This document shows, in pieces, positions 20,646-59,325 of a DNA stretch of 64,000 bases. The translations under genes and the position numbers were made by a program. Positions within the stretch are counted from its first letter, which is position 1. Every line of letters starts with the position of its first letter. Source of the DNA: Asparagopsis taxiformis (Eukaryota > Rhodophyta > Florideophyceae > Bonnemaisoniales > Bonnemaisoniaceae); the NCBI GenBank assembly GCA_030407315.1, contig JALQPE010000443.1, forward strand, positions 1 to 64,000. The letters run 5' to 3'. Below the pieces are notes generated by a model. The model saw only the letters and a list, made by a program, of their open reading frames with translations, had not been told where the DNA came from and did not search any database.

Positions 20646-21877
20646 TCCTTGTCTGCTTCATTCGCTTGAGAGCCATCACGGGTTGTCGCATTGGGTTGTC
20701 CATTGAACGTGTCAATTTTCGGCCTTTTGTTGGGGCATTCCGGATCACCTTGCCAATGACCTGTCTGCTTACAACTGTGACATGTCGTATTCTTTTTGCG
20801 CTCAGAGAACTTTCTAGACTTATTATGTAAGCGGGTCGGACGCTTTCTAGACGCCGTGGCAGCAAATAAGGCTGCTCTTTTCGGTAGTAAAGTATGTTCT
20901 TCGGCTACAAAAAGCCCTTTTTCCTTATGCTCAATAGAGCTCCGCTGCTTGAAAAGCTTTCCGGATGTGTCAAGTGACTTTAGAATATTATACACGTCAT
21001 CCAAGTATATCTTGTGCTTAGTATCACGACTGGCTGTGGCAATACGCGTTCTGGACAGCTCTGCAGATGTAATTTGAGCTGCATTCTTGATCATCTGGAG
21101 TATATGATCATATGCAGACACAGAGAATATTCGCATCTCCGTGTCATTACCCGAGGATCCTGCAACATTCCCAGTATCGGCAGATTGATATGCAGTACTT
21201 AAAGTGGCCATAATATTGTTCAAATTATTCATGACGTCTTTTGACACGGGTAATGGGCTTTGACTGGATGATGTGCGCTGCTGTCCCTGCGCAACTAGTT
21301 GTATTTTTACAGCATTTTGTGTGTCACTCGGTAGTCGCGCGTTTTGTAGCATCACCATTGCTAGAAGCTGTGATTCTTGTTCAGTGGCAGACACACCGGC
21401 CAAAGACATATATTCTGACGCCAGACCGCGGAATCGAGTGGCAAATTGCGATGGTTGCTCATTTTGTAGTCTGATGCAGGTGTGTACCTGCTTATAAACT
21501 GATAGTAAACGGTCAATGATTTCCAAAGGCGTGTCTTGACCTATCAACTCGATAATTTTCATGACGACAGCTTTCTGTCTTTGCTTCTCTCCATCGAAGG
21601 ACAGAGTACCCGAGTCTCTGGCATGGTCTAGTACCTTCTGGTAGCAAGAGTCTACTGCATCATAGAGAACATATGCAAACGTAGCCTCAGTAGCTATTGA
21701 CTTCTTGTCATTGACCTTTGCACGAGTTTCGACAATGTCCATCCATGACATCACATCTCTCCTCCATTTCTGCCTGTCTTGTCCAGGTACCAATGCAGGT
21801 GCATCTTCGAGATTACGCTTGGAATCAGAACTTGTTTTCATAGCCTGAGCTTGCAGATTCTTGCCCGCTGGGCCCAT
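20633..21877 (-). CDS. Copia B gag
   Basis: 414-aa gag opening with MGPAGKNLQ. The start codon lies inside the primer-binding site, four bases from the LTR edge. The body includes QDRQKWRRDVMSWMDI, the gag core EQPSQFATRFRGL and a CCHC zinc knuckle CHSCKQTGHWQGDPEC. The C-terminus overlaps the -1 pol frame. It forms the particle and binds element RNA, and is intact as read. Confidence 0.88.
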   Translation of the reverse strand: MGPAGKNLQAQAMKTSSDSKRNLEDAPALVPGQDRQKWRRDVMSWMDIVETRAKVNDKKSIATEATFAYVLYDAVDSCYQKVLDHARDSGTLSFDGEKQRQKAVVMKIIELIGQDTPLEIIDRLLSVYKQVHTCIRLQNEQPSQFATRFRGLASEYMSLAGVSATEQESQLLAMVMLQNARLPSDTQNAVKIQLVAQGQQRTSSSQSPLPVSKDVMNNLNNIMATLSTAYQSADTGNVAGSSGNDTEMRIFSVSAYDHILQMIKNAAQITSAELSRTRIATASRDTKHKIYLDDVYNILKSLDTSGKLFKQRSSIEHKEKGLFVAEEHTLLPKRAALFAATASRKRPTRLHNKSRKFSERKKNTTCHSCKQTGHWQGDPECPNKRPKIDTFNGQPNATTRDGSQANEADKDFRN

Positions 21878-21880
21878 AAC
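21863..21880 (-). other. Primer-binding site, half-tRNA-Met type (B)
   Basis: The minus strand reads GTTATGGGCCCAGCGGGC at the LTR edge. It is complementary to the anticodon arm of tRNA-Met(CAU), as in element A. Confidence 0.72.
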
Positions 21881-22049
21881 TGTGGTAAAAGTAGTTATTT
21901 CTTAGTGACAATCCTCACACAAGCTCCAATCACGGATGGTTAGCGTTGGAGAACTATTCAGCACAGCTGGGGAAGAGGATGGCTGCTTCTGTGCCTCACT
22001 GCCTCTTCCCGTGCACAACCGCGGCAGATTGTGCTCTTTTATAGACTAA

Positions 22050-23379
22050 TTCGTGGCTAGCTAATCGACATTACTCAATAGCGATTACATTGAGATATGC
22101 TATTGTAGGCGCAATCACGTTTTGGCCCACGCATAACACATTAGCCGCAAGTCATCAAATCCCGAAACCGCCCGGTGGTTTTGAGATTGCAGATACAGCA
22201 AAAGCTGTCTGTGATCCTGATAGAATCGCATAAAGGAATCGCTTCTGAGCTGCTCGCTCAGATTGATTTCCTCTATCAATCACTGCCATAGCAAATGAAG
22301 AAGTAACTGTTGGCCATCATGGCATAGTCAAGTGATAGGTCTATGCTTCTGCCAAACAAACCCAAGCGTTATGTAACTATCCACTCATAGGGAAGTACGG
22401 AATGACAGATTCCACTACATAACCTAAATGCAGTATGGGCATGCTGGAAGATAATCTTCCATCAAGTTACACGTCATTGCCGTGTGTTAGAACCACTGAT
22501 TGGCTCCTCATGTGCCAATCAGATTGATGCATGTTTAGCACCAATCACAGAACCGAAACGAAATGGTCACATGTGTTCTCGCAGGAAGGTGTGGGCGATG
22601 ATGAATAATAACGATAGCGCGCAGCAATTTCACAGCGGTTTGAGAGAGACGATCATGTGAGCGGTGGCTTTCCGTTCACCTACAGACGGCGCAACGCCAA
22701 CATAAACATGCGTCTTCAGTGCGGAGCAAGACATGAGATCGGAGTTATTCAAACCAGCCAAAGCACTTAGCGAATTGAAATTGACAATTTACTTTTCAGC
22801 TTTGTGCAACGAGATCCATCCATTGGCCAATGGAATCTCGACAAGTGGGCGCCAGTTGAATTTGCAGCTGTGTTGCAAACGTAGGCGTATCTATGCATCA
22901 CACGGTGCGTACGCCAGCGTCACGCAACGCGAGCCATTGTCTCCCGAGCGACTTGCTTGAGACGACAGTTCTACAGTAACACAATAGTTGCAGCTGGACC
23001 GTCCACCATCATCCGCTGTTGTAATTATTGCATGAGACATCGAGGAGAGTGGATGATTTTCATCCACATTTAATAGCAACACAACACACGAGCACGTAAT
23101 CTCCAATAATGAGAGTGATTCAATAACCTGTGCAAGTCTGCACATCTCTAATTCTTAGTTGTAATCAGAGTAGCAAAAGATAGTTGTGGATCACTACCAT
23201 CATGAATTGCATTCTACTTACATTCTCACTTTCAATAAACAAGGTACACCGTTCACTTCACACGAACCTCTAGCGTATCAGCACGCTAAGGATAAGCGTT
23301 TGATAACGGTTGACTCATAAGTGGACAGCTTGGCTCCGGCCGCGTCTACTACTTCGGTTCTGTCATAGTTAAACTACAC
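22050..23379. other. Intergenic stretch, nothing recognised
   Basis: Contains the outer part of the B LTR at its left edge. No supported gene, and no NB-ARC sequence that could belong to the NLR2 fragment to the right. Confidence 0.5.
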
Positions 23380-24674
23380 AAATGACCGCAGATTCGATGT
23401 ATTTGGCGTTCATGATGATAACTGTGACGTGCATGTCATTAACGCCCAGAACGGCAACGTGTTACACTCGTTGGCAGATCTTGAGCATTGGGCGTTGTCG
23501 TTAACATCCGACGATGAGCAGGTTTCATCGTATCCTTCGAGCTCTGGGGACCCCAATGATGCAACGCAAGTTTTTCTAAACCGATTTATAGAATCAATAT
23601 GGTTCAGCCCAGATGGTAGCGTCATCTCAGCTGTCGCAAATTTTCGGGTAGGTGGAGAGAATGGGGCAGTTGTGAGGAAGCCAATGTCATGGAATGTGTT
23701 TTCGGGAGAGCTGTTACACGAAGCAAATCCCGATGGCGACAGTGATGCATCAGACAGAATTGCACCTCCTCGGCTGGTATGCAAGACGAGGAGAGGCCAT
23801 TTTGGGCTTCACATTTTAACGGAAGGTGAAGTATGAGGGAAATGACTCATCTTTCGCGATAGCCAGCGTGGAGGGTCAGGTCAGAGCGGGTCACTATTTA
23901 CCCGATACACCTAGACTGTTTAGTGCAAGATTCAAAAGGGGAATATGTCACGTCGATCTCGTCACAGACAGCACTCATCTCCCCCCGCGAGATGAGCCTC
24001 CCCTCCCACCTCTGTCTCAACCGCATCCACCTCCATCAAACGGTCAACCAACACGCTCCGAATCAGAAGAGGTCTACGACGTGTTCATCAGCCACGCCGG
24101 TACCCACAAGCTGACCATTGCCGAGCCGTTATACGAATTGTTGGTTGCACTGGGTTATAAAGTGTTTCTGGACAAGGCTGAGCTGCGTCCCGGGCAGAAG
24201 GCATCTCAGAAGATGATTGATGCGATGCGGACTGCGAAAATTGCTGTGGTGATCCTGTCACCGGAGTTTGCTGCACGCAAGTGGACGCTGAAGGAGCTGA
24301 TGTGCTTCTTGGAGCGATTCGAAAAGGGCGGGGAACGTGAAGTGATCATTATTCCTGTGTTCTACAAAATGACACTGGATGATTGCCGAGACGAGAATTC
24401 GCTATTTAATATGGTTGATGAGAATGGAGAAAGCGTATTCACGAAGGAGGGATTCCTGAAATGGATGGCGAGGCAGAAGGAGATAACTATTGCGGATGTG
24501 TTGAAGGGATTGCAGTCACTGAGGAGTGTGACTGGAATTGAAAACAGTAACGAAGTGACGAATACGGATAGCGATACAGCGCAGATGGAGTTCGTCAATG
24601 AAATCAGAGACGCAATAGTAGAGGCGATGGAGCGACTGAAAATTGGAGGGGCTGCTGGTCCGAGCACTGCATAG
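23380..24674 (+). pseudogene. NLR2 fragment: WD40 C-terminus plus TIR domain
   Basis: C-terminal part of an NLR-like protein paralogous to NLR1. The first piece (to 23838) matches the end of the NLR1 WD40 region: VHVINAQNGNVLHSLADLEH here, VVHIVDARNGNVLRSLSDLE there. One frameshift near 23826 leads to the second piece (282 codons): more shared sequence (KYEGNDSSFAIAS), a Pro-rich linker, then a TIR domain of about 130 residues. The TIR has YDVFISHAG, KVFLDKAELRPGQ, VVILSPEFAARKWTLKEL and IIIPVFYKM. The E of WTLKEL sits where plant TIR NADases have their catalytic glutamate. The 5' part (NB-ARC, most of WD40) is missing. Known plant TIR-NLRs carry TIR at the N-terminus; here it follows the WD40 domain. 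Confidence 0.8.
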
Positions 24675-32092: not shown

Positions 32093-32094
32093 GG

Positions 32095-43997: not shown

Positions 43998-44928
43998 ATG
44001 GAAAATTTCTCCAATCCATCACACAGTCCCGATCCGAATCCCTCCACGCAGCAATCTAACGCCCCACCGCAAACCACCTGTCCCAGTCCATCGACCGCAC
44101 CGCTGCCCAACGCGCCATCCCCCGCTCCCCGTCCTGCGTCCCAGCCTTCCTATCCGCCGCCACATCCCGCTCTGACCCCATCTCCCGCCCAACCGTCTCG
44201 TGCCTCACATCCCGCTACCTTCCACGTTCCCCGTAACTCCCGCCAGACTGTCCTAGACTTTTCCCGAAACTCCCGCACTCCAGAAAGCAAGGCCAAGCAC
44301 GCCCTTCTGTCCGATGACCCAAACAATAACGCTATAGCTCTCGTCGGTATGGGTGGCGCAGGCAAAACAACCATCCTGCGCGCCCTAGGCAGACGTGCAG
44401 ACGTTTGGCAAAAGTTCCCGGACGGCGTGTGGTTCATTGAGCTCGGTCACGGCGCTAAAGTACAGAGGCTGTTTGACCAGCTGGAGCAGATTGTCACCGA
44501 CGCATTCCCAGATTTCCTCCCCAAATTCGTTGAACTCACTGCAAAGGACAACACCCATCTGAATATGATGGAGAAGCTGGTTGACCTACTCGTTCCGAAG
44601 CGCTTTCTCCTCATCTTTGACGACGTGTGGGATCTCAATGCCAATGTCTACACGCTGGTAGACACAGCGTGCAAAGCTGTCCAGGAAATGGATGGAGAAA
44701 GTTGCAAGGTGCTGACGTCGACGAGGAATGAGGCGATAGGTCGTGTACCAACGCATGATGTGTCAATTGCAGTGAGTCCTGCAGATGTGCGTAGGGAAAC
44801 ATGCATTTACATTCTGTGCGGGTATGCTGGGATCGACTGTACCAGGCTTGCGTTGTGGTCTTCACTTAACCGTGGAGCACTGGACAACATTGTTGACCTA
44901 TGTACAGGACTACCACTGGCACTGAGTG
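43998..44928 (+). pseudogene. NLR1 segment 1: Pro-rich N-terminus and NB-ARC
   Basis: Start of an NLR-like STAND NTPase, interrupted by element H. ATG 43998 gives MENFSNPSHSP. Residues 1-85 are Pro/Ser-rich without a CARD, coiled coil or TIR. NB-ARC follows: P-loop VGMGGAGKTT (about 116-125), kinase-2 LLIFDDVWD (204-212), RNBS-B-like KVLTSTRN (237-244) and GLPLAL (304-309). These bind and hydrolyse ATP/ADP and switch the receptor on by oligomerisation. The segment ends after one base of codon 311, at the GAGTG duplication. Removing H restores the same frame in segment 2. The gene lacks introns as read. Confidence 0.88.
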
Positions 44929-45508
44929 TGTTGATGAAAAAAGTGATCAGTGCGACTCTCACTGCGCAACTGTCTGCTTACAGAGCCATGACAACATGCC
45001 AACTCCAAGACAGTGTGAAGGAGACACTAAAATCTCCACGTGGCTGTCTCCTTCGAAGTACGACACAGCGCAAGACAGTGATAACCCTAGAGATAGATCC
45101 ATTGCGGAAGCCAGCGAGCTCGCAACCCAAAAGGGAAGCATCTAGAGACAGTTTCGAGTTCAGTATTTAAGTGGTAGGTGTAGAACATCCTCCAACAACT
45201 AAAGCAAGACAATTAACAACAAGAAAACATCAACCAAACCACACCAATCGCCAAGGCGAATATTAGAGAAAACCTCTAACTCTCCCAAGGGAGAAACACT
45301 CCTGCTTCCAAGGAAGCGACCCCCGCCTTCAAGGAGGCAACCCACCGCCTTTAAGGAGGCAACCCACCGCCTTCAAGGAGGCACCCATCACTCCCAAGGG
45401 AGAATAATTAACCGCAGTGCGTCACTGCCTGCAACCGAATCATAAGAAACGTGTCTAACACTTTCTGACAAACAGCCCTCAAAAGAAACAATTCAGAATC
45501 CCACATCA
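44929..45508 (+). repeat. 5' LTR of element H
   Basis: 580 bp, TGTTGATGAAAA to CCCACATCA. Holds the hairpin array at 45248-45402. Confidence 0.94.
45248..45402 (+). repeat. Array of seven small hairpins in LTR H
   Basis: Seven inverted repeats centred on AA: TCGCC-AA-GGCGA, TCTCCC-AA-GGGAGA, GCTTCC-AA-GGAAGC, GCCTTC-AA-GGAGGC (twice), GCCTTT-AA-GGAGGC and CTCCC-AA-GGGAG. Stem sequences differ but pairing is kept (including G-U). The 3' LTR has the same array. Confidence 0.85.
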
Positions 45509-45646
45509 CTTCGAAGTAAGTGGGTCTGGAAACTCACTGGATAAGGAATGAACGCCTTCCTGAATCAATACCTCTGCACAAGTGGTTATATAACCCTGCA
45601 TTCAACTCTGTCGAACTACACACATCATCAAGCCTTGGATTCCAAA

Positions 45647-46624
45647 ATGAGTTCAAAACCGTACGCCCCTCCTGCCCCGGGAACCAGAGCGGCTAAATAT
45701 CTCATGATCAAAGATGTAAAACTTTGTGACCACCCCATGGCGAAATCATGTATTAAGGAACTGGAACTAATCGATCCGGACTCAAAGGTCGTCGATTACG
45801 TCATATATGTCATAACAAAGATACTACAAGGAGATGCACTACCGGAAGACAGCAAGAACGAACTGTTTAATGATCTCACGGCTGACTTACTGGGAGACGA
45901 AGCAGTCTTAGCTGAAAAAAAGCTGTTTTACATCCTACGCAACGTACCATTAATGGTCGGAGCAGAAGTTCGCAGCGGCAAAGGCAACCCAATCGTCACT
46001 GCAGTGCTAGAAACTATATTTCCTGCAGTCACAGAAGCAATCGCGCACGTTACAGCCAGACAGAAGGCAATATCTGAGCGCCAACGAAACGGAGACGCGT
46101 TCTCAATCGATAACGCCCGAGCCCGAGAGGAATCAAGCCACGAAGCAAACGGAACGAAGGAACCGAATAACTCACCGATGAAGGGCCCTATAACGCGCCA
46201 ACACATGGCTAATGAAAGTGACGTACAGGATTCGTCATCACCACCAGCTAACCTCCCCAATGCTGAAGATATAGTGACCAACATCGAAACATCAGAGAAG
46301 AGGAAACCCCGAAAGAATAATTCCCAAACCCAATCGAGGAAACAGAACTCCCGTGAAACGCTGGATGGCGACAATAGTGACCAATATCCAAGCGAAAGCG
46401 AACCGGACGATGAGACTTATGTCCCTACGGATACCAAAAACTGGAAAGGACGCAGACAAGTCGAGCAGTCCAGATCACAGTCATATGACTTAGCCAGCAA
46501 CAAAAGTCGCGTTGCGCTAATGGTGAAGGACAAATGCTTTACCGGAGCACCAGACACTGGAACGGACTTCTATACGATGTCAAAACATTCGAAGCGGCCT
46601 GCATTCAGCAAGAGATACCACTAG
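45647..46624 (+). pseudogene. Element H gag, N-terminal part
   Basis: From ATG 45647 (MSSKPYAPPAPG), about 325 aa: a helical N-terminal region (CIKELELIDPDSKVVDYVIY) then a charged low-complexity region. The frame ends shortly after a -1 shift leads into the next ORF. Because the shift lies within gag and not at the gag-pol border, it is probably a mutation, not programmed. Confidence 0.65.
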
Positions 46625-47646
46625 ATGAAGCTACAGACGTCCTATGGCATTGCTTAGACGGAGACGCCAAGCGATTCTACTTTGAGCACATACAAGGAAA
46701 GAGAATGACTCTTACGGAGACATTTGGCCTCTTAAAAAGCCAATTCGATACCTTGCATCATCAAAGCCAAGCCCAATCATATGTCAACAGCATCACCATG
46801 CAAGCCATCCGATGCGAAAAAGGATGCAACGATATTGAAGCGCTACGAATCGTCCATCAACGGCTGTCTGAAACGTTACCGAAGTGTGGACAGATCTGTC
46901 GCAGCGACGAGTACAAAATATTGACTCTCGAGCGAATCGTCAAATACGAATCATGGGCAGCGAACGTAATAACTACCCGATCGGCTAACCCCAACCTTGC
47001 GTACTCGAGCTTCTATACAATGCTTTGCACCGCCGCAAATTTACACGTTGAGAAATCAGCTATCAGTTCGGCTAATGACGAACAGACCACAGAGGAGAAC
47101 AAGCAGATTGCAACAATTCCAATACATTATGGGTCAACATACGGCGTGAATGACTCACAACACTATGGGAAGAGAAGCGGGGAAGCCAAGAAAGTTTTCC
47201 ATCGACGTGGAAACCGACTCGAAAACCGCTCGCCAAATTACTTCCGGAACAACCGGCGCACTGCAGAGCAGATGGAAACTCGGAAGTCTCGCACCCGTTG
47301 TCACTACTGCGGCGAGCTTGGCCATTGGCGAGAGGAATGCAAGAACAGAGATCGGACATTGGCCGACGTCGTTCGAGCACGCCTAAGCGAGAAAGCAGAC
47401 CTGCAGCCTCTCACAGCCTTCGCTGAAGTTCTCGGAGAAATTGTACAACACGAGGACGAGTACCACGAATACGTCACCATGTGTTCGCCCGAATCACGCA
47501 TAGAAGAAAGCCAAAATAGTCACGTGGAACTCATGAACGACGTATTATACAGCAACGAAGAAGCGGAAGCATGCGCGACAGATATATTCAACCAAATCGC
47601 AGCCGATTCTGGGAGTCGACAACATTTTCAGGATGGGGGAGCTTAA
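46534..47646 (+). CDS. Element H gag, core and zinc knuckle
   Basis: Second gag frame. From about 46560 it holds the Copia gag core (YDVKTFEAACIQQEIPLDEA, VLWHCLDGDAKRFY) and a CCHC knuckle CHYCGELGHWREEC. It ends CAT TTT CAG GAT and a TAA. Pol overlaps in the -1 frame. The TTTTC at 47625 matches the slip position in A and B. The ATG at 46534 is only the first in frame and not clearly a real start. Confidence 0.7.
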   Translation: MLYRSTRHWNGLLYDVKTFEAACIQQEIPLDEATDVLWHCLDGDAKRFYFEHIQGKRMTLTETFGLLKSQFDTLHHQSQAQSYVNSITMQAIRCEKGCNDIEALRIVHQRLSETLPKCGQICRSDEYKILTLERIVKYESWAANVITTRSANPNLAYSSFYTMLCTAANLHVEKSAISSANDEQTTEENKQIATIPIHYGSTYGVNDSQHYGKRSGEAKKVFHRRGNRLENRSPNYFRNNRRTAEQMETRKSRTRCHYCGELGHWREECKNRDRTLADVVRARLSEKADLQPLTAFAEVLGEIVQHEDEYHEYVTMCSPESRIEESQNSHVELMNDVLYSNEEAEACATDIFNQIAADSGSRQHFQDGGA

Positions 47647-50600
47647 GTGAGGACCCCTCCTCCACAAACAACTGCGATAACACGCATATTGACGACGAAA
47701 CCGTCAAGACAAACACCTCACAAAGACCCACACTCCCCGACAACGGCTTACAACTAAACCAGGAGACTTGCCGACCACCTCCGAAACCGTCACCAAAGGT
47801 GAATTCACAATTCGATGAATATTTCAGTCTACAGCCAAAATTCAAACTCATCTCGCGCTCTATCAACCACCCAGAAAAACAAAAAACACATCTAGAACAC
47901 CACGTCCCGACGCCAACTTGGAAATTGAGACACGACAGCGGAAGGGAAGACAACGGGAAATTCCTAGGCGCGCTTATCGACACAGGCGCACAACGCTCAG
48001 TCATCGGCGAAGCCCAGGCACTTGCTTATTGCAACGAACATGGAATACCCTATCAACCATCAAAGTCATACAACAAATTCCGATTTGCGTCACTTTTGAA
48101 AACTTCACTTGGGAAGATCCCCATTCTCATAACCACACCAAACGGGTTACTCCGCATGAATGTCGATATTGTCAGAGAAGACATACCACTCCTGATGGGT
48201 ATCAATTTCATGGATGAAAACGGTTTGCAATTCCTCTCCGTAAGAAATGAACTTCAATGCGTACATGACGACTGGGCAATGCCCGTCACACGACGCGGTG
48301 GACACGGATACCTATGTTGGGAACCGATATCAAGCGTGATGTTCAACAAGGCACAACTATTGAGATTGCATCAACACTTACTACATCCAAGCGTGCAGAA
48401 ACTTTACAACCTCCTTCAGCGAGCGAAACCAGAAGATATGACTCCGAATACCAAGGAAATTCTGCAAGAAATTACGAGTAATTGCGAACAATGCATCAGA
48501 TTCTCGAACAGACCGATCACATTCCGCGTTCGTGACGACGAAAAATTGCGCTTTAACCAAGAACTAATGCTGGACATCATGTACCTACCAACGAAAAATG
48601 GAAGACAAACACCAGTACTACATATGGTGGACGCCGCCACCCGCTTCAGCGCTGCATGTATGCTGCACAAAGTCAATGTCTCAGCAGTATGGAACGCCTT
48701 CTTAAGGAACTGGTCTACCATGTACGTGGGATACCCAGAATCCATGTTGACAGACCAGGGATCAGTCTTCGTATCAGCAGAATGGAAGTACGCATGCGAA
48801 GTGCAGAACATAGAACTACGCAACACAGGAACAGAGAGTCATAATTCATTGGGAGCAGGTGAAAAATATCACCACACACTGCGAACAATCTATCTCAAAG
48901 TCCAAGCCGACTTCCCATCCGTCGACGACGCTACACTACTCGCGATATCAGTGAAGGCGATGAATGATACCGTCGGACCGGAAGGACTCGTCCCGTCACT
49001 ACTAGTCTTCGGCGCCCTTCCTCGATTACCAACCATATCGCCCCGTGACTATCCATCACACAAGGAACGTATGCGCGCCATGATAGTGGCACGAAACGAA
49101 CACGAGAAGATAGTTGCACGAAACAGAGTAAGAGTCGGCATATCAAGACGGCCACCACCTTCCGCAAATTACGACATTATGCCAGGCGACTTTGTGTACG
49201 TCTACCGCGAGCGAATTAAGGCCTTTACAGGACCTCACCTTGTCGCAGAAGCGAATGGAAAAGAACTAAGAATACACGTCGGCGATCAAAGGGGGCCGAG
49301 ACCATTCAATATAGCACAAGTCAAGCCGGCACCTATCGGCCGAAGAGATGACACTGCAGCATCCATTGGATACACAAACCACTCCCGTCCGCAATCGAAT
49401 ATCATGCACACTGAAACCTTGCCCGCAGGAGACCCACGTGAGTACCTGTTCGATGATGCGAAACGCAACGAGCTCCTCGGATTAATTGAGAAAGGCACAT
49501 TTCGGATTGTACTTAAAGAGGACATGAAGAAAGAAGGACATAATCTGAACGTTATCCCGTCAAGATTCGTATTAACCATCAAGGAAAACGATGGCATAAC
49601 AAAGTACAAAGCGAGGTTTGTACTAGGCGGACACAAGGATCGTGACAAGAACACGATAGTCCACAACTCTACTACGCTCAGACATTCATCCGTCCGTGTC
49701 TTGATGGCACTTGCCACTATAATGGGATTCGACATCTGGTCATCAGACGTCACCCAAGCGTACCTTCAGGCTGGCGCGAAATTACAGCGAAAAGTCTTTA
49801 CCCGACCCAACATCCTCAATTTGGCACAAAACGAATTACTGCAAGTTATACTACCCCTTTACGGACTCCGTAAAGGGGTAGTATAACGGTGAGTCGGACT
49901 CACCGATTCTGGTGACTATTGGCACGAAACGATTACCAAGTTCCACCTTAATGAACTCCGCATGAAACAACTAGCTGGGGATTTCTCATTCTTCTTCCGC
50001 AAAGCAGCCAATCGGCTAATCTCAATGTCAGGTGCATATGTTGATGACATCCTCCAAGCATCACTCCCCTCTGACAAACCGAAACTACAGAAATTGATGC
50101 AAGAAAACTTTGACATAAGGCTGAATGGCCAAAAGGACTTCACATTTACCGGCATACAATGCAGCACTTCTGACAGTCTGTTGCGAACCATGACACAACG
50201 CGACTATATCGGCCGACTAAAACTACTGACGTCAGACACCAACTTCGCTACTTTTCGCTCTATGCGACACAAGCTAGCATGGGTAACCAACACGCGTCCG
50301 GACATCGCGTGCGCTGTTTCAATGCTGACCCAAGTGACGGAAAGAAACTTTGGCCAGGAATCAATTCGCGAAGCGAACAAAATTATCAAACACCTTCAGA
50401 AAACTCAAGAGATCTCCCTGAATTATCCTAAGCTCGACATGGAGACGCTTAGAATACTGATTTATACGGACTCAAGCTTCAACAACCGCACGGACAATCG
50501 CTCTCAACTTGGATATATTATCATTTTGTCTGATGCCTCTAACAAGTGCAGCATTCTACATTACGCCTCTATTAAGAGCAAACGTATTGTACGCTCAAGT

Positions 50601-51230
50601 ATGGCTGGAGAAACACTGGCATTTTCGGCGGGATTCGACGCTGGATTCATCCTGAGACATGACATTGAACTCATGACAGGAATGAAAATCCCTATAATAA
50701 TGTTGACGGACTCAAAATCACTCTTTGACGTGCTAACTCGCGCAAAGTATACAACGGAAAAACGGTTAATGGTTGACATAGCCGCCGCCCGAGAAGCCTA
50801 CAACGATCACGTCATCTCTAACATTGCTCTCATAGCTTCCGCTGATAACCCAGCCGACGCCCTCACCAAAATCGGACACAATTCGGCGCTGCAAAATCTA
50901 TTACGCACTCATCGCATATCACACCCCATCATCCAGTATGTGATAGAAAACCAGTTGCACGCCAGCAATTTACAACGAGATCCAGCGCAGTTCGGTCTTC
51001 CAAAAGGGGCATGTGTTGATGAAAAAAGTGATCAGTGCGACTCTCACTGCGCAACTGTCTGCTTACAGAGCCATGACAACATGCCAACTCCAAGACAGTG
51101 TGAAGGAGACACTAAAATCTCCACGTGGCTGTCTCCTTCGAAGTACGACACAGCGCAAGACAGTGATAACCCTAGAGATAGATCCATTGCGGAAGCCAGC
51201 GAGCTCGCAACCCAAAAGGGAAGCATCTAG
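47571..51230 (+). pseudogene. Element H pol, interrupted in RT
   Basis: Protease ALIDTGAQRSVIGEA; zinc region HQHLLHPS to CEQC; integrase core (MLDIMYLP, LTDQGSVF, GAGEKYHHTLR); RT start (SSDVTQAYLQAGAKL, LPLYGL). Then a 33-nt insertion at 49869-49901 adds in-frame TAA and TGA. The frame resumes unchanged: TDSGDYWHETI, catalytic box AYVDDILQAS, RNase H (IYTDSSFNNRTDNRSQLGY, SSMAGETLAFSA, LTDSKSLFDVL, NPADALTKI). The C-terminus runs about 70 codons into the 3' LTR. Apart from the insertion it looks undamaged. Confidence 0.88.
49849..49911 (+). repeat. Two nested palindromes at the H RT insertion
   Basis: TTATACTACCCCTTTACGGA, one base, then its exact reverse complement; directly followed by CGGTGAGTC-G-GACTCACCG. 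Together they mark a 33-nt templated insertion (49869-49901). Confidence 0.9.
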
Positions 51231-51593
51231 AGACAGTTTCGAGTTCAGTATTTAAGTGGTAGGTGTAGAACATCCTCCAACAACTAAAGCAAGACAATTA
51301 ACAACAAGAAAACATCAACCAAACCACACCAATCGCCAAGGCGAATATTAGAGAAAACCTCTAACTCTCCCAAGGGAGAAACACTCCTGCTTCCAAGGAA
51401 GCGACCCCCGCCTTCAAGGAGGCAACCCACCGCCTTTAAGGAGGCAACCCACCGCCTTCAAGGAGGCACCCATCACTCCCAAGGGAGAATAATTAACCGC
51501 AGTGCGTCACTGCCTGCAACCGAATCATAAGAAACGTGTCTAACACTTTCTGACAAACAGCCCTCAAAAGAAACAATTCAGAATCCCACATCA
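51014..51593 (+). repeat. 3' LTR of element H
   Basis: 580 bp, matches 44929-45508 as read. Followed by GAGTG. Confidence 0.94.
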
Positions 51594-52416
51594 GAGTGTA
51601 GCTGGGTCTGGGATGCAAGAAGTGATTGGTCGATGCACAGATGTGTGTGGACCAAATGCAATTGTGCAATACTGGGAGAGTCTGAAGCGGAGTAGTGTGG
51701 AATTGTGTATTGCGGAGACTGGGAGTAGACACGTGGGGCTGGATGCAGCAATTCAGACGAGCTTGAAGTCGCTGGAGAAAGTGTGGAAGGGGAAGAGCAT
51801 GAATATGGAAGAGATGTTTCGATCGTTTTGCGTAGTGGAAAAGCAGATGTCTGTTCCATTGTGTGTGATCGAGAAGATATGGGGTGTAGAAGATGCGCTC
51901 GCAAGGGTGAGGATGTTCTCGAGATACAGTCTGGTATCATTGGATGAAGATGATGGAGGGCTAGTGAGGGGGATACGACTTCATGATCTTGTTCACGATG
52001 TGTGTGTGGGAATGGCAGAGGGGAGGGAGGGAGTACGAGGGTGGCATGGGCGGCTTGTGGATGGATACCGGGGATCACTACGGACAAGTCGAGGGGGTGC
52101 TGAAGATCATGCGATGAATGCAGGAGGAGAGGGCACCGAGAGTGAAGAAGACAAGTGGTGGGAACTGAAGAAGGAGAAGTACATAAAGGACAACGTGGTA
52201 CGACACCTGCTCGGAGCTGGGCGGGTGAGTGCTGCGCTCAAGGTGTTGACGGATTATCGATGGACCGAGAAGATGAATAAGGATGAAGAGCAACCGCCGT
52301 TCCAGAAGGTCATGAGGGAGTTGGAACTCATACGAAGGCACTTGGAAGAAGAAGAGAAGACGGAAATTGGAAGAAAAATTGTCCGTGATTTATACGTTGT
52401 CACAAGGGCAATGGAG
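51594..52416 (+). pseudogene. NLR1 segment 2: winged helix, MHD-like motif, helical linker
   Basis: Continues NLR1 in frame after the target duplication (VAGSGMQEVIGR). SVPLCVIEKIWGVEDAL matches the winged-helix pattern of NB-ARC proteins. IRLHDLVHDVCVGMAE (about residues 436-451) is an MHD-type motif with L for M; the His-Asp pair that senses ADP is kept. A charged helical region follows, with ALKVLTDYRWTEKMNKDEE, also found in NLR3 and NLR4. The open frame ends at 52417 in a TGA supplied by the first bases of element F. Confidence 0.87.
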
Positions 52417-52528
52417 TGACGAATAACTTACACATTTACAGTACTTACAGTCATCACAACACATAGATAAACCTCCGCCGACGATCTCGGGGAGGAATAA
52501 ACGGTCAAGCAACCACGTTTGTTTCACA
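52417..52528 (+). repeat. 5' LTR of element F
   Basis: 112 bp, TGACGAATAACTTACAC to TTTCACA, with AATAAA (GAGGAATAAACGG). Its TGA ends the truncated NLR1 frame. Confidence 0.93.
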
Positions 52529-52546
52529 GGTTATGAGCCCAGACGC
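52529..52546 (+). other. Primer-binding site, half-tRNA-Met type (F)
   Basis: GGTTATGAGCCCAGACGC directly follows the LTR. Its complement reads GCGTCTGGGCTCATAACC, an anticodon stem-loop with CAU anticodon. Confidence 0.75.
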
Positions 52547-52611
52547 TACAATCTGCTTCCCTCCACCCGCCCATTCTTCCTAATCACCGATCTCACGGCT
52601 GCACACTACCC

Positions 52612-52795
52612 GTGCCTCTCTTACGGCACCATCTAGCTCCACGCCTCTCTTACGGCGACACTCCCAGCCCGTTATCACGCCTCTTTTACGGCAGTAACTG
52701 ATCACACGCCTCTTTTACGGCGATATCTACATTTCACAATCTCGCCTCTGTCCACGGCGACCCTCACCTCTCAATATCACGCCTCTTTTACGGCT
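52612..52795 (+). repeat. Array of six hairpins in the leader of F
   Basis: Six units at about 30-37 nt spacing (52612, 52642, 52678, 52707, 52742, 52780), each GCC-TCTTTTAC-GGC or close. Flanking pairs vary together: GTGCC/GGCAC, CGCC/GGCG, TCGCC/GGCGA. They lie between the primer-binding site and gag. Confidence 0.85.
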
Positions 52796-52914
52796 ATATT
52801 TTCGACGTGTTTCCCACACACACTTACTCATCCACTACCTCATTTTTCCGGCGACCTTTCCCCAATTTCTGTTGACTTTCTACTTCTATTCCAGAAACAC
52901 TCAAACTTCACAAC

Positions 52915-55900
52915 ATGGCTGACCATGAACATTCCACCCCCGTTCCGCCTACTCCACAGATCCAGCACCAATTGGAAATACCAGAACTCAACAATGGGAA
53001 TTACATTCCATGGAAAATAACGGTGGAACATTTTGCTCGAGCCCAAGGTGTCTACGACCACTTGACCAACAACATACCTGTTCCGTCTGACCCTATTATG
53101 GCGACCGAGCACTTCACCAAACACACACAAGCCCAATTGCTTGTACTATCCACTTTATCTCAAGACATCATGAAACACTACACCGACTCGGAACTCCACG
53201 GACCTATTAGTGTTTTATACAACAAAATTCATCACCGAATGACCACCGTGAGTCCGGAAAAATCCCCTGAGAACCTACGCCGAAAAGCTCGTTCCATACA
53301 TTGGTCACATTCTACCCCCATTTCTAATTTCATCAATCAGCACCTTGAACTTCGGACAGTCATGATCAGATCCAACTACCCCGAAATTTCCAACGAGCAA
53401 ACCACCATTCGTTTCATGCTGGAAGCCTTAGAAGGTCATTCCGAATGGACAACATTCCTACAAACCGTGTCAGCACACATGGATTTGAATCCTGACCGAC
53501 CACCCTCTCTTCATCACATCACTGCCATGATGCTCAAACACGATGACCTCCGCTCATGCTCTTCTATCTCCAACCAACCCACCAACCATTCTACTCCTCC
53601 TCCCTTCATCCGAAACCCTCAACGATACTACCAACGCCGCAGCTATACTCGCCGCACACCCAAACCTCATCCCTTTCACCCCGAAAACCACATACCAAGG
53701 CCACATGGCCACTCTGGCAGATGGTGCACCATGCATGGTACGAGCTCCCATGATACTTCCCACTGCAAAATGCGCAAGCGGCTTGAACGTCTTCCGCATA
53801 CTTCCGACCACAAACAATTCCGCCGCACGCCGCCGCAAAACATTGGTCACCAAGCTATTGACCCCTCCGAAGGATATGATTCTCCTGCTCCACACTCTGA
53901 CTCCGATGACGTAAGTTCCAGTCAACATACAACTTACATTCTCGATTCCGGAGCAAATCGTACTCACCTCACTTCTCCCTCCACAGACATCCCCGTGAAA
54001 CTGTCTTCCACAATATGCGCAGATGGCAGACGTGCACAAGTAACACATGGTGGACGAGCGTCAATTCCTGCGCTACAACACACTCCCCTCCCGGCACACG
54101 ACGTCGTCGTGGCTCCCTCACTGCAGCATAATCTGCTATCCGTGGGCCAAATAGCCAAAACACACGACGTCATATTCCAACGGAAAACAGCTTTCATTAA
54201 AACACCATCTCCTCCCCCACCCAGCGACCAAATCGTAGCCACTGCTTCCAAGACGCGCGAAGGACTCTATCGTCTACGATATCCTAACCCACACAAGTCG
54301 CAATTACGCCGCTTAAGAAGGAACAACAGGCAAAAAACGCTTGCCAATGGCGCACGAGCACTCCCTACCATACGAAAATCAAAACAAATCAAACTATCCT
54401 CTACAAACAAGCCACCAGCTCAAACGCCAAATATAATTCCCAAGCGCCTTCGCAAATCGCGCTCACAGAAACGTTCTCAACCTATTACATTTCTCAAAAA
54501 GGTCATTTCCAAGAAGCCCCAATCTCAAAAACCTCGTATCCCTCCACGAACGCACCCAAGACTCAAGGCGGATCTACCGTCCACTATCAGAGACTACCAC
54601 AAGTGGCATCTTAAACTGAACCACATTCATCCAAACAAGATTCACTACATGGCTAAGAATGGCCTTGTTTCCAACATGCCTTCAACACTGCTCCGCACAC
54701 CCCCTCGTGATTTCATCTGCTCTGGCTGTGCACAAGGAAAAATGCACGCAGCTCCATTCCGCCGCAAAGTACGCCTTGCCCCTATCGGTTCTCACCTACA
54801 CACCGATGTCTGCGGTCCCATGCCTCATAATTCCTTTTCCCGCAATCGTTTCTTCATTACCTTCCTTGACGAAGGCAGCAGATTCCTCACTCTGATACCC
54901 ATCAAATCAAAAGCGGACGTAGGCTCCACCCTATCTCAACACATCACTGACACACTCACTCATACCCCACACCGCATCACACAGCTCACCTCAGACAATG
55001 CCAAAGAATACCACACACATTCCCTCACATCCTTTTACAAACAACACAACATCCACCTTCACCCTACCATACCTCACACCCCGCAAGAAAATTCTCTTGC
55101 CGAGCGAGTGAATCGTACAATCATGAACACAACCCGTACCACACTCCTATCCGCCAATTTACCATTAGAACTGTGGGACTACGCTGCCATTGCCGCAGCT
55201 GACACGTACAACCACACCCCGCATGCAGCACATGGCCAGCTCCCAGCTGCCCTTTGGCACAATATTCACCCACAAGTCGACTCACTCCTCCCATTCGGTA
55301 CCGACGGCTACATCCATGACCCATCCCCACATAACAAACTGCAGTCCCGTTCCAAACTCGTCACATACATTGGACGATGCGACTACAACCACTACTTTGT
55401 TTACGATCGCAACTCACACAAGATATCACGATGCCGCACACGAGATTTCACCATTTACGACCCCCTGCATGATCCCATTTGTACCACATCTCCCTCATCG
55501 ATGACACTAACTGCCAAAACACCGTCGTTAACCTTTACGGAGCCCAAAAACGTAAAGCAAGCTCGATCCGCTCCAGACGCCAGGGAATGGGAAATTGCAT
55601 GGAACGCAGAACTCGACAATTTGGAAGAGCGTGGTGTACTGACGTACATACCCAAGACCGATGTCCCACCCAATACGAAGCTCCTCCCGGTTCAAACTGT
55701 CATAAAACTCAAAACTGACAGTGATGGTTCACCCACTACCCGCAAAGTTCGCTGTACTATACGAGGTGACCGCCAAATTTCCGGCCTACACTACGATCCG
55801 GATGATTTATCTAGTCCAGTTGCCAGCCGCGAAGCGATACGAACGGCCCTAGCACTTGCGGCTGCTCATAATTGGCACACCTTTCACTGGGACCTTGAAG

Positions 55901-57132
55901 CCGCATTCTTACATGAGCTGTTTACAGAAGATCGACACATCTTCCTCCACCAACCGCGCCGTTTCGATGGCACTTTAAAATATCCAAATCATGTAGCCAA
56001 ACTGACTGGAAACATGTATGGCAGTCGCCAGGCTTGTAAGATATTCACTGAAGGCCTGGCAGACTTTCTCAACGTCTCCGACTTCTCCCGCCTTACATCT
56101 GACACCTGCTCTTTTCTTCTCCGTCACCAAATTAACCCATCCCACTTCGTCTTACTCGTCATCACGGTGGATGACTTCCTCGTGGTCTCTAACCATATTC
56201 CCCTTGTCAATAAGGTTAAAACAAGACTTCAACAGAAATATACTCTCAAAGATCTCGGACAAGTAACAAACATACTTGGCTGGAAAGTAGAACACTCAAA
56301 AGAAGGCATCAAGATTTCACAGCCTGGATACATCCAAAATCTCATCGATCGCTTTGGACAAACTGATGCCAAACCCTTCCCATCTCCCATCGCTTCAGAA
56401 ATCGTTGCCGACTTAAACAGTGAAAGCAAACCACTGGACACATCCACTTATGAATACAAAAGCCTTATAGGATCCCTTCGATACCTATGTGATTCCACCC
56501 GCCCCGACTTATCCTACATTGTAGGCTTCCTCGGCCGTTACTCACATGCTCCGACACAACACCATTGGAAGGCCGCCATCCGTATTTTACGCCATCTCAA
56601 AACCTCCTCATCCAAAGGAATTCTATACCCTCGCGGATTCTCCACCGGCTTACAAGCTTATTCGGATTCCGACTTTGCTGCTTGCCCTGATACGCGCCGC
56701 TCTACCTCTGGATCCATCATATTTTACAACAGTGCACCCATATCATGGCAGTCTCGCCGACAACGCAACGTTGTCACCTCTACACACGCAGCTGAATATA
56801 TCGCTGCTTTCCAAACAACCTTACTACTCAAATCGATTTCTAACTTTCTCACAGAACTGGGACACGCGCAAACAGACCCAATTCCTCTCTATATGGACAA
56901 CGCAGCTGCCATCAGTACTGCTAAAGCCAAATACCCCACACCAACCTCACGTCACATTGACGTCAAATTCCATTGGCTACGAGAACAGGTCAAACAAAAG
57001 TTTATACTCCCTACACATATCCCTTCTGCGCAAAACCCAGCAGACCTATTAACTAAGGCTCTCAAGCCTGCACAATTCACTGCCAAGGTACAACTCCTTC
57101 GTCTGAATCCACTCACAGCGCGCGGCGACTGA
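52915..57132 (+). CDS. Gag-pol polyprotein, Copia element F
   Basis: 1405-aa open polyprotein from ATG 52915 (MADHEHSTPVPP). Gag has LNNGNYIPWKITVEHFAR and a CHHC knuckle WCTMHGTSSHDTSHC. Protease YILDSGANRTHLTS. GAG-pre-integrase WHLKLNHIHP to CSGCAQGKM. Integrase core HTDVCGPMP, TSDNAKEYH, ENSLAERVNRT. RT FHWDLEAAFLHELF, GNMYGSRQACKIF, catalytic box TVDDFLVVSN. RNase H AYSDSDFAACPDTRRST, TSTHAAEYIAAF, NPADLLTKAL. It is most like element G, and gag and pol share one frame. The stop codon TGA (57130) coincides with the copied LTR start in the 3' stem-loop. Confidence 0.95.
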   Translation: MADHEHSTPVPPTPQIQHQLEIPELNNGNYIPWKITVEHFARAQGVYDHLTNNIPVPSDPIMATEHFTKHTQAQLLVLSTLSQDIMKHYTDSELHGPISVLYNKIHHRMTTVSPEKSPENLRRKARSIHWSHSTPISNFINQHLELRTVMIRSNYPEISNEQTTIRFMLEALEGHSEWTTFLQTVSAHMDLNPDRPPSLHHITAMMLKHDDLRSCSSISNQPTNHSTPPPFIRNPQRYYQRRSYTRRTPKPHPFHPENHIPRPHGHSGRWCTMHGTSSHDTSHCKMRKRLERLPHTSDHKQFRRTPPQNIGHQAIDPSEGYDSPAPHSDSDDVSSSQHTTYILDSGANRTHLTSPSTDIPVKLSSTICADGRRAQVTHGGRASIPALQHTPLPAHDVVVAPSLQHNLLSVGQIAKTHDVIFQRKTAFIKTPSPPPPSDQIVATASKTREGLYRLRYPNPHKSQLRRLRRNNRQKTLANGARALPTIRKSKQIKLSSTNKPPAQTPNIIPKRLRKSRSQKRSQPITFLKKVISKKPQSQKPRIPPRTHPRLKADLPSTIRDYHKWHLKLNHIHPNKIHYMAKNGLVSNMPSTLLRTPPRDFICSGCAQGKMHAAPFRRKVRLAPIGSHLHTDVCGPMPHNSFSRNRFFITFLDEGSRFLTLIPIKSKADVGSTLSQHITDTLTHTPHRITQLTSDNAKEYHTHSLTSFYKQHNIHLHPTIPHTPQENSLAERVNRTIMNTTRTTLLSANLPLELWDYAAIAAADTYNHTPHAAHGQLPAALWHNIHPQVDSLLPFGTDGYIHDPSPHNKLQSRSKLVTYIGRCDYNHYFVYDRNSHKISRCRTRDFTIYDPLHDPICTTSPSSMTLTAKTPSLTFTEPKNVKQARSAPDAREWEIAWNAELDNLEERGVLTYIPKTDVPPNTKLLPVQTVIKLKTDSDGSPTTRKVRCTIRGDRQISGLHYDPDDLSSPVASREAIRTALALAAAHNWHTFHWDLEAAFLHELFTEDRHIFLHQPRRFDGTLKYPNHVAKLTGNMYGSRQACKIFTEGLADFLNVSDFSRLTSDTCSFLLRHQINPSHFVLLVITVDDFLVVSNHIPLVNKVKTRLQQKYTLKDLGQVTNILGWKVEHSKEGIKISQPGYIQNLIDRFGQTDAKPFPSPIASEIVADLNSESKPLDTSTYEYKSLIGSLRYLCDSTRPDLSYIVGFLGRYSHAPTQHHWKAAIRILRHLKTSSSKGILYPRGFSTGLQAYSDSDFAACPDTRRSTSGSIIFYNSAPISWQSRRQRNVVTSTHAAEYIAAFQTTLLLKSISNFLTELGHAQTDPIPLYMDNAAAISTAKAKYPTPTSRHIDVKFHWLREQVKQKFILPTHIPSAQNPADLLTKALKPAQFTAKVQLLRLNPLTARGD

Positions 57133-57187
57133 CGAATAACTTCTCTTTTTCCGCGCTGTGACTACATCCAGCCTTTCCGAATAACTT
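57114..57187 (+). promoter_or_regulatory. Pre-LTR stem-loop with LTR-start copy (F)
   Basis: The stem CACAGCGCG (57114-57122) / CGCGCTGTG (57152-57160) encloses TGACGAATAACTT (57130-57142), the start of the LTR. A second copy, CGAATAACTT (57178-57187), begins the LTR body. Element G has the same stem with one compensating pair change (A-T to G-C). Confidence 0.72.
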
Positions 57188-57286
57188 ACACATTTACAGT
57201 ACTTACAGTCATCACAACACATAGATAAACCTCCGCCGACGATCTCGGGGAGGAATAAACGGTCAAGCAACCACGTTTGTTTCACA
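57130..57286 (+). repeat. 3' LTR region of element F
   Basis: From 57178 it equals the 5' LTR from its fourth base to the end at 57286. The first three bases of the 5' LTR (TGA) occur only at the upstream copy, 57130, so the exact 3' LTR start is ambiguous. Confidence 0.85.
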
Positions 57287-59325
57287 TGGAGCGTTGCATG
57301 GTGCCGTACTGCGTAAAGAATCGAAAAGAATGTACGTTTCAACTATTTGGGCGACCGCGCGATGTTGTGAGCGAGAGTGGGTTGGTGGAGCAAATAGTAT
57401 ACAGTATTGAGAAATATGCGGAGCGGCCTTGGGCTCGTTGTGGGCCTGGGGTGCTGGAGATTGGGGGGAGCTCGCTGCGATGTGTACTGGAGGTGGAAGG
57501 TCGTGGACGATGTATGTGGGTCAGTGGGGCAAGGGAAGAAGTGATTGTGGGAGGGGAGAATGGAAAGGTATGGGTGTTGGATGGTAGTGAAGGGAGGGTG
57601 AAGAGAACCCTAGCTGAAGACGAAGATAGTGCTATCGTGGGTGTGTTTTTCGACCGCATCTCGGGGTTGATGTACTCATGCAGTGGAAGAGGACAAGTGA
57701 CAATATGGAAAGAGGAAAAGTTGCGATCAATGCAAGCTGAAGTAGAAGACGAAGAGGAGATCTTTTGTATGCAAGTATTGCTTTCGTCGAGGAAAGTGGT
57801 TCTAGGCACAAGTAAAGGGCGACTAGTAGTGATGGATGCAACGAGCGGGAGAGTAGTTCGAATTGTCGCCGCGCATTCTGATGGAGTGACTTCGCTATCA
57901 ATTGGAGGAAGCGAAACTGTGATAGTGTCTGGATCACGGGATGGATCGATTCGTGCATGGGATACGACAAGCTTTGACGAAATCGGCACTGTATTCTCGG
58001 GGCACACACGGAGGTTGACCAGCGTAGCATTGAGCGCTGATGAGAGACTACTGGCCTCGGGGTCGTGGGATAGAAGCGTTCGGCTTTGGGACGTGCAGAG
58101 TGGTGAGCAACTATGGACATCACCTCACGAACATGACGCTTTGGTGTATTGTGTTCTGCTTAATGGCGATGAACGTTTGCTATATTCTGCGGGCTCCAGA
58201 GGAACGAACGTATGGAGGGTGATGAAGGGTGGTCGTGACGTGTCACTGGCGCACACTCTCCCCTGTGCGTCGAAATATGTCGTCGAATCGCTTGGTCTGG
58301 GGGATGCAGCGCAACTGTTCGGGTTGAGTGAAAATCGAGTACAAGTTTGGGACGCGCGACAAGTCGGCAGTTGTGATGATTCGGTCGATGAATTTCTTTC
58401 GGACGTGTTCGGATTTGTTGTTTCTGAAAATGGGACAACAATGTTGACGTGGAACCTCTGGTTGAGAGGGATGGAGATACGGAGTACGAGTGACGTGTGC
58501 GAGCGCATTGATCGCGTCATTTCGAGTTTCAAAATCCCTGTTCATTACCCTCGGCTAGAATCACTGGCCGTATCAAACAACCAGCAATTGGTTGCGTTCT
58601 CTTGTTGGCAGAGTTGTGTAGTTCATATCGTTGACGCGCGGAATGGAAATGTTCTGCGTTCACTCTCTGATCTCGAGGAATGGGCGTCATCGTTGACACG
58701 CGATGAACATGGTGGCCCAAGGAATCCTTGGAATTGCCGGAACTCGAATATTACGGCACGAGTCGAATCGAACAGAGCTATTGAGCTACTCTCGTTGAGT
58801 TCAAACTGCAATGTGATTACAGCTTCGGCAGCCGCCGAAACAAACTCATACGAAGAGAATGCGAGGGCTGTCGAGAGAAAGTCTATGTCTTGGAATTTAT
58901 CTTCAGGAGAACCCGTAGACGAAATCCGTATGGACAGCGGTAGTACCGCAATGGGTAGCACAGCATCTTCTCGTTTGGTTTGCAATGGGGAATTTGACAA
59001 ATACCCCTTCCGTTTTCCACCTGATGTGAAGTACGAGAACTGCTTATCGTCTTTCACCATCGCAACTATGGAGAATATTGTGTATTGTGCCCATTACATC
59101 GCCAATACCTCCCGATTACTCCTTTCAACATCGCAAAGGGGTATGTGCTATATCGATCTAATCACCAACAACACCAAACTCCCACCGCGCAATGTACCCC
59201 CTCTACCCCTCCTTCGCCAACCTCATCCACATCCACCCCCATCACAGGACACAATCGCCGATACCGAAGCTGATAAAGTATTCGCAGGTCCTAGTATCGC
59301 GTGGGGTCGCAAAGGTGTAGAATAG
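57287..59325 (+). pseudogene. NLR1 segment 3: WD40 repeats, Pro-rich tail, TIR missing
   Basis: Resumes NLR1 in frame after TGGAG (RCMVPYCVKNRKECTFQ). About seven WD40-type blades follow; the clearest are AHSDGVTSLSIGGSETVIVS with GSIRAWD, and GHTRRLTSVALSADERLLAS with RSVRLWD. A less regular region matches NLR2 (VVHIVDARNGNVLRSLSDLE), then a Pro-rich linker (PPRNVPPLPLLRQPHPHPPP). The protein stops a few residues into the place where NLR2 begins its TIR (DKVFAGPSIAWGRKG then stop). WD40 rings in Apaf-1-type NLRs sense ligands. Without H and F the gene would be 3783 nt. With them it cannot make the full product. Confidence 0.85.

What the first reader, a model, noticed from the sequence alone, without database searches (positions are those of the whole stretch)
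23380..24674. NLR family with the TIR domain at the C-terminus (NB-ARC, WD40, TIR)
NLR2 joins a WD40 tail that is clearly paralogous to NLR1 to a full TIR domain through a Pro-rich linker shared by both. NLR1 supplies the upstream NB-ARC and MHD-like parts. The inferred full order is Pro-rich, NB-ARC, winged helix, WD40, TIR. Plant TNLs have TIR first and LRRs last; Apaf-1-like proteins have NB-ARC-WD40 but no TIR. The putative NADase glutamate (WTLKEL) is kept. I do not know a described family of this order.
Basis: partly seen in the sequence, partly recalled or inferred. Interest (0 to 1): 0.85.

Follow-up and report, generated by a model that had tools for sequence, protein, structure and literature searches.

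The report
Algal immune receptors, TIR end reversed
A red alga carries dozens of apparently intact NLR-type immune-receptor genes in which the likely cell-death enzyme (TIR) sits at the very end, behind the sensor, instead of at the front as in plants and in the red algae compared here.

Summary
Confirmed and extended. The window holds two broken members (NLR1: NB-ARC to WD40, cut by two young Copia elements, no TIR; NLR2: WD40 tail, Pro-rich linker, TIR, no N-terminal part). The genome, a red alga by kinship and a phycobiliprotein contig, settles the order: 43 places have NB-ARC and TIR in one open frame, NB-ARC first in 43 of 43; with a second search the union is 60 places on 39 contigs. Twenty ORFs read out show: often an MG start, Pro-rich stretch, NB-ARC, winged-helix/helical part, WD40 region, Pro-rich linker, TIR, conserved tail. 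The catalytic-Glu motif is kept in 20 of 20. The nearest organism-named kin (Chondrus, Gracilaria) carry a homologous TIR at the N-terminus, so the module has changed ends within red algae. TIR is the most constrained part (median dN/dS 0.19), the second WD40 half the least (0.71), and paralogues exchange modules. Inferred: Apaf-1-like oligomerisation clustering C-terminal TIR NADases, possibly membrane-anchored by myristoylation. One bacterial MAG protein has the same order with a distant TIR. My searches found no paper describing this order in a eukaryote. Function untested. New variant of a known kind.

The parts
23369..23791 (+). NLR2: part of the second WD40 half (family residues ~1007-1170), frame 2
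   Evidence: tblastn of paralogues, 41-58% identity in the four queries shown; no Pfam hit alone
23808..23975 (+). NLR2: end of the WD40 region, frame 3, in frame with linker and TIR
   Evidence: tblastn
23976..24071 (+). NLR2: Pro-rich linker (32 residues)
   Evidence: read directly from the sequence; same place in paralogues
24075..24485 (+). NLR2: TIR domain
24294..24296 (+). Putative NADase glutamate (W-T-L-K-E-L)
   Evidence: nearly invariant column E159 in a 19-row alignment; motif in 20 of 20 paralogues
24531..24674 (+). NLR2: conserved C-terminal tail behind the TIR (TGIEN..TN.. then a predicted helix) and stop
   Evidence: shared with paralogues and with N-terminal TIRs of Chondrus; helix in model
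43998..44926 (+). NLR1: Pro-rich start and NB-ARC
   Evidence: Pfam NB-ARC 1.3e-21; tblastn 65-76% in the four queries shown
44927..51586 (+). Copia-type element inserted in NLR1; terminal repeats 44927-45501 and 51012-51586 identical (575/575)
51595..52416 (+). NLR1: winged-helix and Apaf-1-like helical part with LHDL motif
   Evidence: tblastn 59-79%; weak Pfam Dark_WHD 0.0022, APAF1_C 0.0093, both under cut-off
52420..57278 (+). Second Copia-type element in NLR1; repeats 52420-52520 and 57178-57278 identical (101/101)
57286..59292 (+). NLR1: WD40 region and Pro-rich linker; ends at the TIR start, TIR missing
   Evidence: Pfam WD40 7.2e-20; tblastn 50-62%

Best explanation
The window copies are decayed members of a large red-algal NLR family, largely intronless where read, of order [often MG start, acylation-like]-Pro-rich-NB-ARC-WHD/helical-WD40 region (probably two propellers)-Pro-rich linker-TIR-tail. 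Shown: the order, the copy number as a lower bound, conservation of the catalytic-Glu motif, strong constraint on TIR, fast change of the second WD40 half, module exchange between paralogues, and that the nearest organism-named relatives carry a homologous TIR at the other end. Inferred: it works as an intracellular non-self sensor. A ligand contacts the WD40 part, the NB-ARC swaps ADP for ATP and assembles an Apaf-1-like wheel, and the tethered C-terminal TIRs are brought together and cleave NAD+, killing the cell or making a signal. The enzyme hangs behind the sensor (SARM1-like placement) rather than leading into the hub as in plant TNL resistosomes, and the hub end may be held at a membrane by a lipid.
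Against: No expression, binding, NADase or infection data. By sequence the best PDB match of the window TIR is a bacterial TIR (AbTir 1.1e-14), ahead of plant ones (Roq1 9e-13). The WD40 model has mean pLDDT 68.8, its last quarter is weak, and Apaf-1 is not its best match by E-value. 8 of 20 lack an MG start in my reading, so the lipid anchor is not universal or start codons are wrong. Many copies are broken, including both in the window. dN/dS pairs are few (9-23), not independent and touched by gene conversion. Searches score only the best candidates and include likely haplotig copies.
Confidence: 0.72

Rival explanations
1. The family serves self/non-self recognition between individuals or cell fusions (like fungal HET-D/E WD40 NLRs), not pathogen defence; same machinery, different ligand.
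For: Many paralogues with fast-changing WD40 parts and module exchange are also what fungal incompatibility NLRs show (recalled; an abstract start on Podospora het-d/het-e NLRs was seen in the listing).
Against: Nothing here separates the two. Only neighbouring evidence: three NB-ARC+WD40 genes rise in Pyropia during oomycete infection (PMC6928737, passages read), and those are listed without TIR.
Confidence: 0.25
2. The C-terminal TIR is a scaffold that recruits another TIR or effector and does not cleave NAD+ (as in MyD88 or Mal).
Against: The Glu motif is kept in 20 of 20; the best matches are plant TIRs by structure and bacterial and plant TIRs, several named as NADases, by sequence.
Confidence: 0.15
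3. The domain order makes no mechanistic difference: the linker lets the TIRs reach the hub and form the ordinary TNL-type assembly.
For: The linker is Pro-rich, roughly 30-45 residues in the rows read and variable (median identity 42% for the stretch 1171-1254); the TIR model is most like plant TIRs.
Against: The hub end carries its own MG start in 12 of 20, suggesting it does another job; no structure is available.
Confidence: 0.35
4. NLR2 is a chance fusion of two unrelated genes.
For: None beyond the broken state of this copy.
Against: 95 scored matches share the WD40-tail-linker-TIR stretch and 43 places join NB-ARC to TIR in one open frame.
Confidence: 0.01

Closest known systems
Red-algal TIR-NB-ARC-WD40 proteins (Chondrus crispus P0015, P0016, P0021; Gracilaria domingensis P0012)
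   Same: NB-ARC in one red clade with this family (97/87); same TIR module including the TGIEN..TN tail in Chondrus; WD40 by Pfam in the three Chondrus proteins.
   Different: TIR at residues 8-153 (Chondrus) or 72-214 (Gracilaria), before NB-ARC; here it is last. The Gracilaria record (893 aa) showed no WD40 although its source names it a WD40-repeat protein.
Chondrus Roc-TIR protein P0096 (probably the TPR-ROCO-TIR of PMC11378527, passages read; the identity of the two is my inference)
   Same: Closely related TIR module at the C-terminus; its TIR is sister to Chondrus NLR TIRs (98/93; 100/98).
   Different: Roc GTPase instead of NB-ARC; no WD40.
Apaf-1
   Same: NB-ARC, winged helix, helical part, WD40 region; sequence match over residues 106-468.
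   Different: Has CARD at the front and no TIR (recalled).
Plant TNLs (RUN1, RPP1, Roq1)
   Same: TIR fold and Glu motif; NB-ARC.
   Different: TIR first, LRR last (PMC8635717 and PMC9153377 passages).
SARM1
   Same: C-terminal TIR NADase behind sensor and oligomerising parts (PMC8635717 passage).
   Different: ARM and SAM domains, no NB-ARC.
NLRP1/CARD8 (recalled, not tested)
   Same: Animal immune sensors with the effector domain at the C-terminus.
   Different: CARD freed by FIIND cleavage; NLRP1 has NACHT and LRR, not NB-ARC and WD40.
Terriglobia bacterium MAG protein (L041 2692-6351; P0078)
   Same: NB-ARC (5e-28), WD40, then TIR_2 (7.4e-18) in one 1219-aa ORF.
   Different: TIR on a very long branch (3.93) and a weak match to this family's profile (2.7e-4); the only such bacterial case among the 46 proteins with both domains.

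Membership tests
STAND/NB-ARC NLR | NB-ARC with P-loop, DDVW (Walker B) and GLPLAL | tested here: met
   Pfam NB-ARC over cut-off in 6 of 6; DDVW in 20 of 20, GLPLAL in 19 of 20; P-loop in 18 of 20 when read from the first Met
STAND/NB-ARC NLR | MHD-like motif in the winged helix | tested here: met
   [MLIV]HD[LIV] in 20 of 20
Plant TNL | TIR at the N-terminus | tested here: not met
   TIR follows NB-ARC in 43 of 43
Plant TNL | LRR sensor | tested here: inconclusive
   WD40 found in 6 of 6 and no LRR among the 25 shown of 32-42 families; the own-genome LRR_1 search found nothing but no control rang
Apaf-1 family | NB-ARC, WHD, helical part and WD40 region | tested here: met
   Apaf-1 among PDB matches for residues 106-468; WD40 in 6 of 6; APAF1_C in 2 of 2 only below cut-off (0.0012 and 0.00083)
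Apaf-1 family | N-terminal CARD | tested here: inconclusive
   First 100 residues of L025 and L034: no Pfam family at E 0.1, 2 of 20 tested; a very divergent domain cannot be excluded
Catalytic TIR (NADase) | TIR fold and catalytic Glu position | tested here: met
Catalytic TIR (NADase) | NAD+ cleavage | not testable with these tools
   needs protein
Red-algal TIR-NB-ARC-WD40 of Chondrus type | homologous NB-ARC and TIR | tested here: met
Red-algal TIR-NB-ARC-WD40 of Chondrus type | TIR before NB-ARC | tested here: not met
Bacterial NB-ARC-WD40-TIR (P0078) | common descent of the arrangement | tested here: inconclusive
   TIR long-branched; the NB-ARC in record P0078 is too short and was not in the tree

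The most novel reading that the evidence does not exclude
Within red algae the TIR NADase of an NLR family has moved between the hub end and the far side of the sensor, and a lipid anchor has taken the hub end. The family has expanded to at least 60 single-frame places (haplotig copies included) and shuffles its TIRs among paralogues, giving an 'inside-out' resistosome in which the enzyme assembles from the sensor side.
Probability: 0.45. Interest if true: 0.85.

Novelty: new variant of a known kind. Interest (0 to 1): 0.72.

Why it matters
Plant TNLs put the TIR first, and models of their activation rest on stacking it over the hub (recalled). A large, constrained eukaryotic family with the TIR last, whose nearest named kin have the same TIR first, is a natural domain-permutation experiment: it makes testable whether TIR enzymes need hub geometry or only proximity. 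It also points to a big, fast-changing receptor repertoire in a red seaweed, a group whose immunity is little studied.

Tried and rejected
Chance fusion or artefact of NLR2: rejected. N-terminal TIR members in this genome: none found among scored hits; the two TIR-then-NB-ARC spacings under 2.5 kb lie in two neighbouring open frames; the best match to the NB-WD40 part of Chondrus P0015 (C69, L046) shows no TIR in the locus held. Single versus multiple origin of C-terminal placement: AU tests reject neither one clade of all C-terminal TIRs (p 0.464), nor of these without P0003 (0.128), nor of the four N-terminal ones (0.273), nor of these plus ROCO (0.596): open. Homologue search with the TIR region of L025 alone returned none of 877 candidates, although the full-length search found kin, so it says little. 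EDS1_EP and LRR_1 searches of the genome found nothing, but no control genome rang either: not evidence of absence. An animal precedent was sought in a placozoan paper: passages list WD40 or TPR repeats with CARD, death-like or death domains. One paper search was too loose to use (1,502 papers).

Full report
What is there. Window ORF 23820-24674 is a TIR domain by Pfam (2.2e-19 and 8.6e-19), preceded in the same frame by the end of a WD40 region and a Pro-rich linker. WD40-type sequence further upstream is in another frame (23369-23791), and the N-terminal two thirds of the protein are missing: NLR2 is a truncated, frame-broken copy. NLR1 carries NB-ARC (43998-44926), a winged-helix and helical part (51595-52416) and WD40 plus linker (57286-59292), split by two Copia-type elements with identical terminal repeats (575/575 and 101/101 bases), hence young insertions; it stops where the TIR should begin.

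The genome (141.5 Mb, 3156 contigs) was searched with Pfam NB-ARC (114 scored hits of 414 candidates) and TIR (150 of 275). I paired hits on one contig and strand, within 7.5 kb, with equal reported open-frame length: 43 pairs, NB-ARC first in 43 of 43; the 20 fetched do hold both in one frame. A further 29 NB-ARC hits have a nearest unpaired TIR within 6 kb in another frame, 24 downstream and 5 upstream; these were not followed one by one. A search with the 1358-aa P0009 gave 34 scored matches of 1317 candidates, 22 of them near full-length without a stop; the union with the 43 is 60 places on 39 contigs. Five groups among the 60 share an open-frame length (53 distinct lengths), and some of these (C680/C961, C2602/C2620, C107/C460) look like haplotig copies, so 60 is not a gene count; because only best candidates are scored it is not an upper limit either. 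The window's two copies are not among the 60.

Selection and shuffling. Median pairwise identity over 190 pairs of the 20 is TIR 69%, NB 55.5%, WHD/helical 50%, first WD40 half 51.5%, second half 37%. With a Nei-Gojobori script, on pairs with dS 0.05-0.8, median dN/dS is 0.185 for TIR+tail (10 pairs), 0.275 NB (10), 0.33 WHD/helical (9), 0.46 WD1 (23), 0.71 WD2 (17) and 0.545 linker (22); in the close pairs L037-L038 and L037-L039, WD2 is 2.19 and 1.22, at small dS (0.031 and 0.086). These pairs are not independent. Chimeras are plain: L023 and L036 share 98% of TIR but 46% of NB-ARC; L023 and L034 share 88% of NB-ARC but 64% of TIR; L031 shares 97% of NB-ARC with L026 and 92% of TIR with L027. 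A conserved engine and enzyme with a fast sensor is what an immune or allorecognition receptor should show.

Kinship. The organism is a red alga by two lines: the closest proteins that bear an organism's name are from Gracilaria and Chondrus, and contig C469 carries 11 of 13 phycobilisome matches. In the NB-ARC tree this family is one clade (100/100) within a red clade (97/87) that also holds Chondrus, Gracilaria and some unnamed proteins, apart from bacteria and plants. In the TIR tree the red TIRs, N-terminal, C-terminal and ROCO, stand together against plant TIRs (100/100). Of 127 homologues listed (one search listed the best 120 of 197), 46 match both my TIR and NB-ARC profiles: 41 have TIR first and 5 have TIR after. 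The five are P0008 (96.5% to L028) and P0009 (98% to this genome), which look like the same species; P0010 (not placed, unanswered); P0116, a plant protein with TIR far downstream of an NB-ARC, perhaps a compound gene; and P0078, a Terriglobia MAG protein whose ORF is NB-ARC (5e-28), WD40, TIR_2 (7.4e-18), its TIR distant. So the order itself has a bacterial precedent; whether by descent or convergence is open. P0003, a metagenomic WD40-tail-TIR fragment, is at most 42% identical to anything scored in this genome, so the arrangement probably exists in another lineage too. Chondrus has the same TIR module, tail included, in front, and Gracilaria a related one; Chondrus also has it behind a Roc protein (P0096). 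The module has thus changed position, but the data do not say which end is ancestral or how often it moved.

Mechanism, marked as inference. Sensing by WD40, nucleotide switch and wheel formation by NB-ARC as in Apaf-1 and plant resistosomes, then TIR clustering and NAD+ cleavage. What differs is geometry: the enzyme hangs behind the sensor on a Pro-rich tether, as SARM1 carries its TIR last (PMC8635717 passage), while the hub end often has an acylation-like start. Whether TIRs gather at the rim or fold back over the hub is open. A C-terminal effector in an NLR is known for NLRP1 (recalled), which is why I lowered interest from 0.74 to 0.72 on checking; no other score changed.

Literature. Read as passages only: PMC9806590 (C. 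crispus 'TIR-NBARC-WD40'), PMC7145615 (C. crispus 61 NB genes, 58 NB-WD40, 23 of 58 with TIR, order not given in the passage), PMC9153377 (TIR attached N-terminally to NBD in plants and bacteria), PMC11378527 (TPR-ROCO-TIR), PMC8891106 (rhodophyte NB-ARC/WH/APAF1_C/WD40), PMC6928737 (Pyropia NB-ARC+WD40 induced), PMC8307928, PMC8635717, PMC6321704. None of these passages states a C-terminal TIR on an NB-ARC-WD40 protein, nor do the titles and abstract starts listed by searches (25 of 190 papers; 15 of 176). Subscription papers, including the Chondrus genome paper and Gao et al. 2018, and supplements were not read, so prior description cannot be excluded.

Verdict. A real, large and constrained family; a new variant of NLR architecture rather than a new kind of system.

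Noticed in passing
window 37939-39063 (+) and 37733-37864 (-): A third, decayed member of the same NLR family (residues ~67-600, about 28-51% identity over several frames), with a small piece of the same protein on the opposite strand beside it.
   Followed up: partly
window 30873-31087 (+): Two short pieces (53 and 55% identity to L023 residues 319-350 and 369-397) of a possible fourth NLR relic.
   Followed up: no
window 11614-14001 (-): 795-aa open frame of Sel1 repeats (Pfam 3.6e-24), apparently an ordinary gene among the transposons.
   Followed up: no
L046 211-4356 (-) (G000:C69, match 31982-34264): A different NLR class in the same genome: NB-ARC and WD40-like sequence without TIR, with about 190 residues of helical-looking sequence at the front (by reading); the best match in the genome to the NB-WD40 part of Chondrus P0015.
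   Followed up: partly
L041 2692-6351 (+): Bacterial (Terriglobia MAG) single-ORF NB-ARC-WD40-TIR protein of 1219 aa: same domain order, distant TIR; a possible bacterial defence protein.
   Followed up: partly
G000:C107: One contig of 172 kb holds eight near-full-length matches to P0009 on both strands, some with 1-2 stops: a receptor cluster.
   Followed up: no
G000:C469: Plastid-like contig; a phycobilisome match occurs at 33273 and 210443 with equal scores, suggesting a circular plastome of about 177.2 kb assembled with an overlap.
   Followed up: no
window 3911-8725, 17607-21901, 26272-30063, 32095-37272, 60176-63274: Much of the window is LTR retrotransposons with long open frames; Pfam was run on 3911-8725 and 60176-63274 (Gypsy-like) and 17607-20657 (Copia-like); the others are judged by reading only.
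   Followed up: partly
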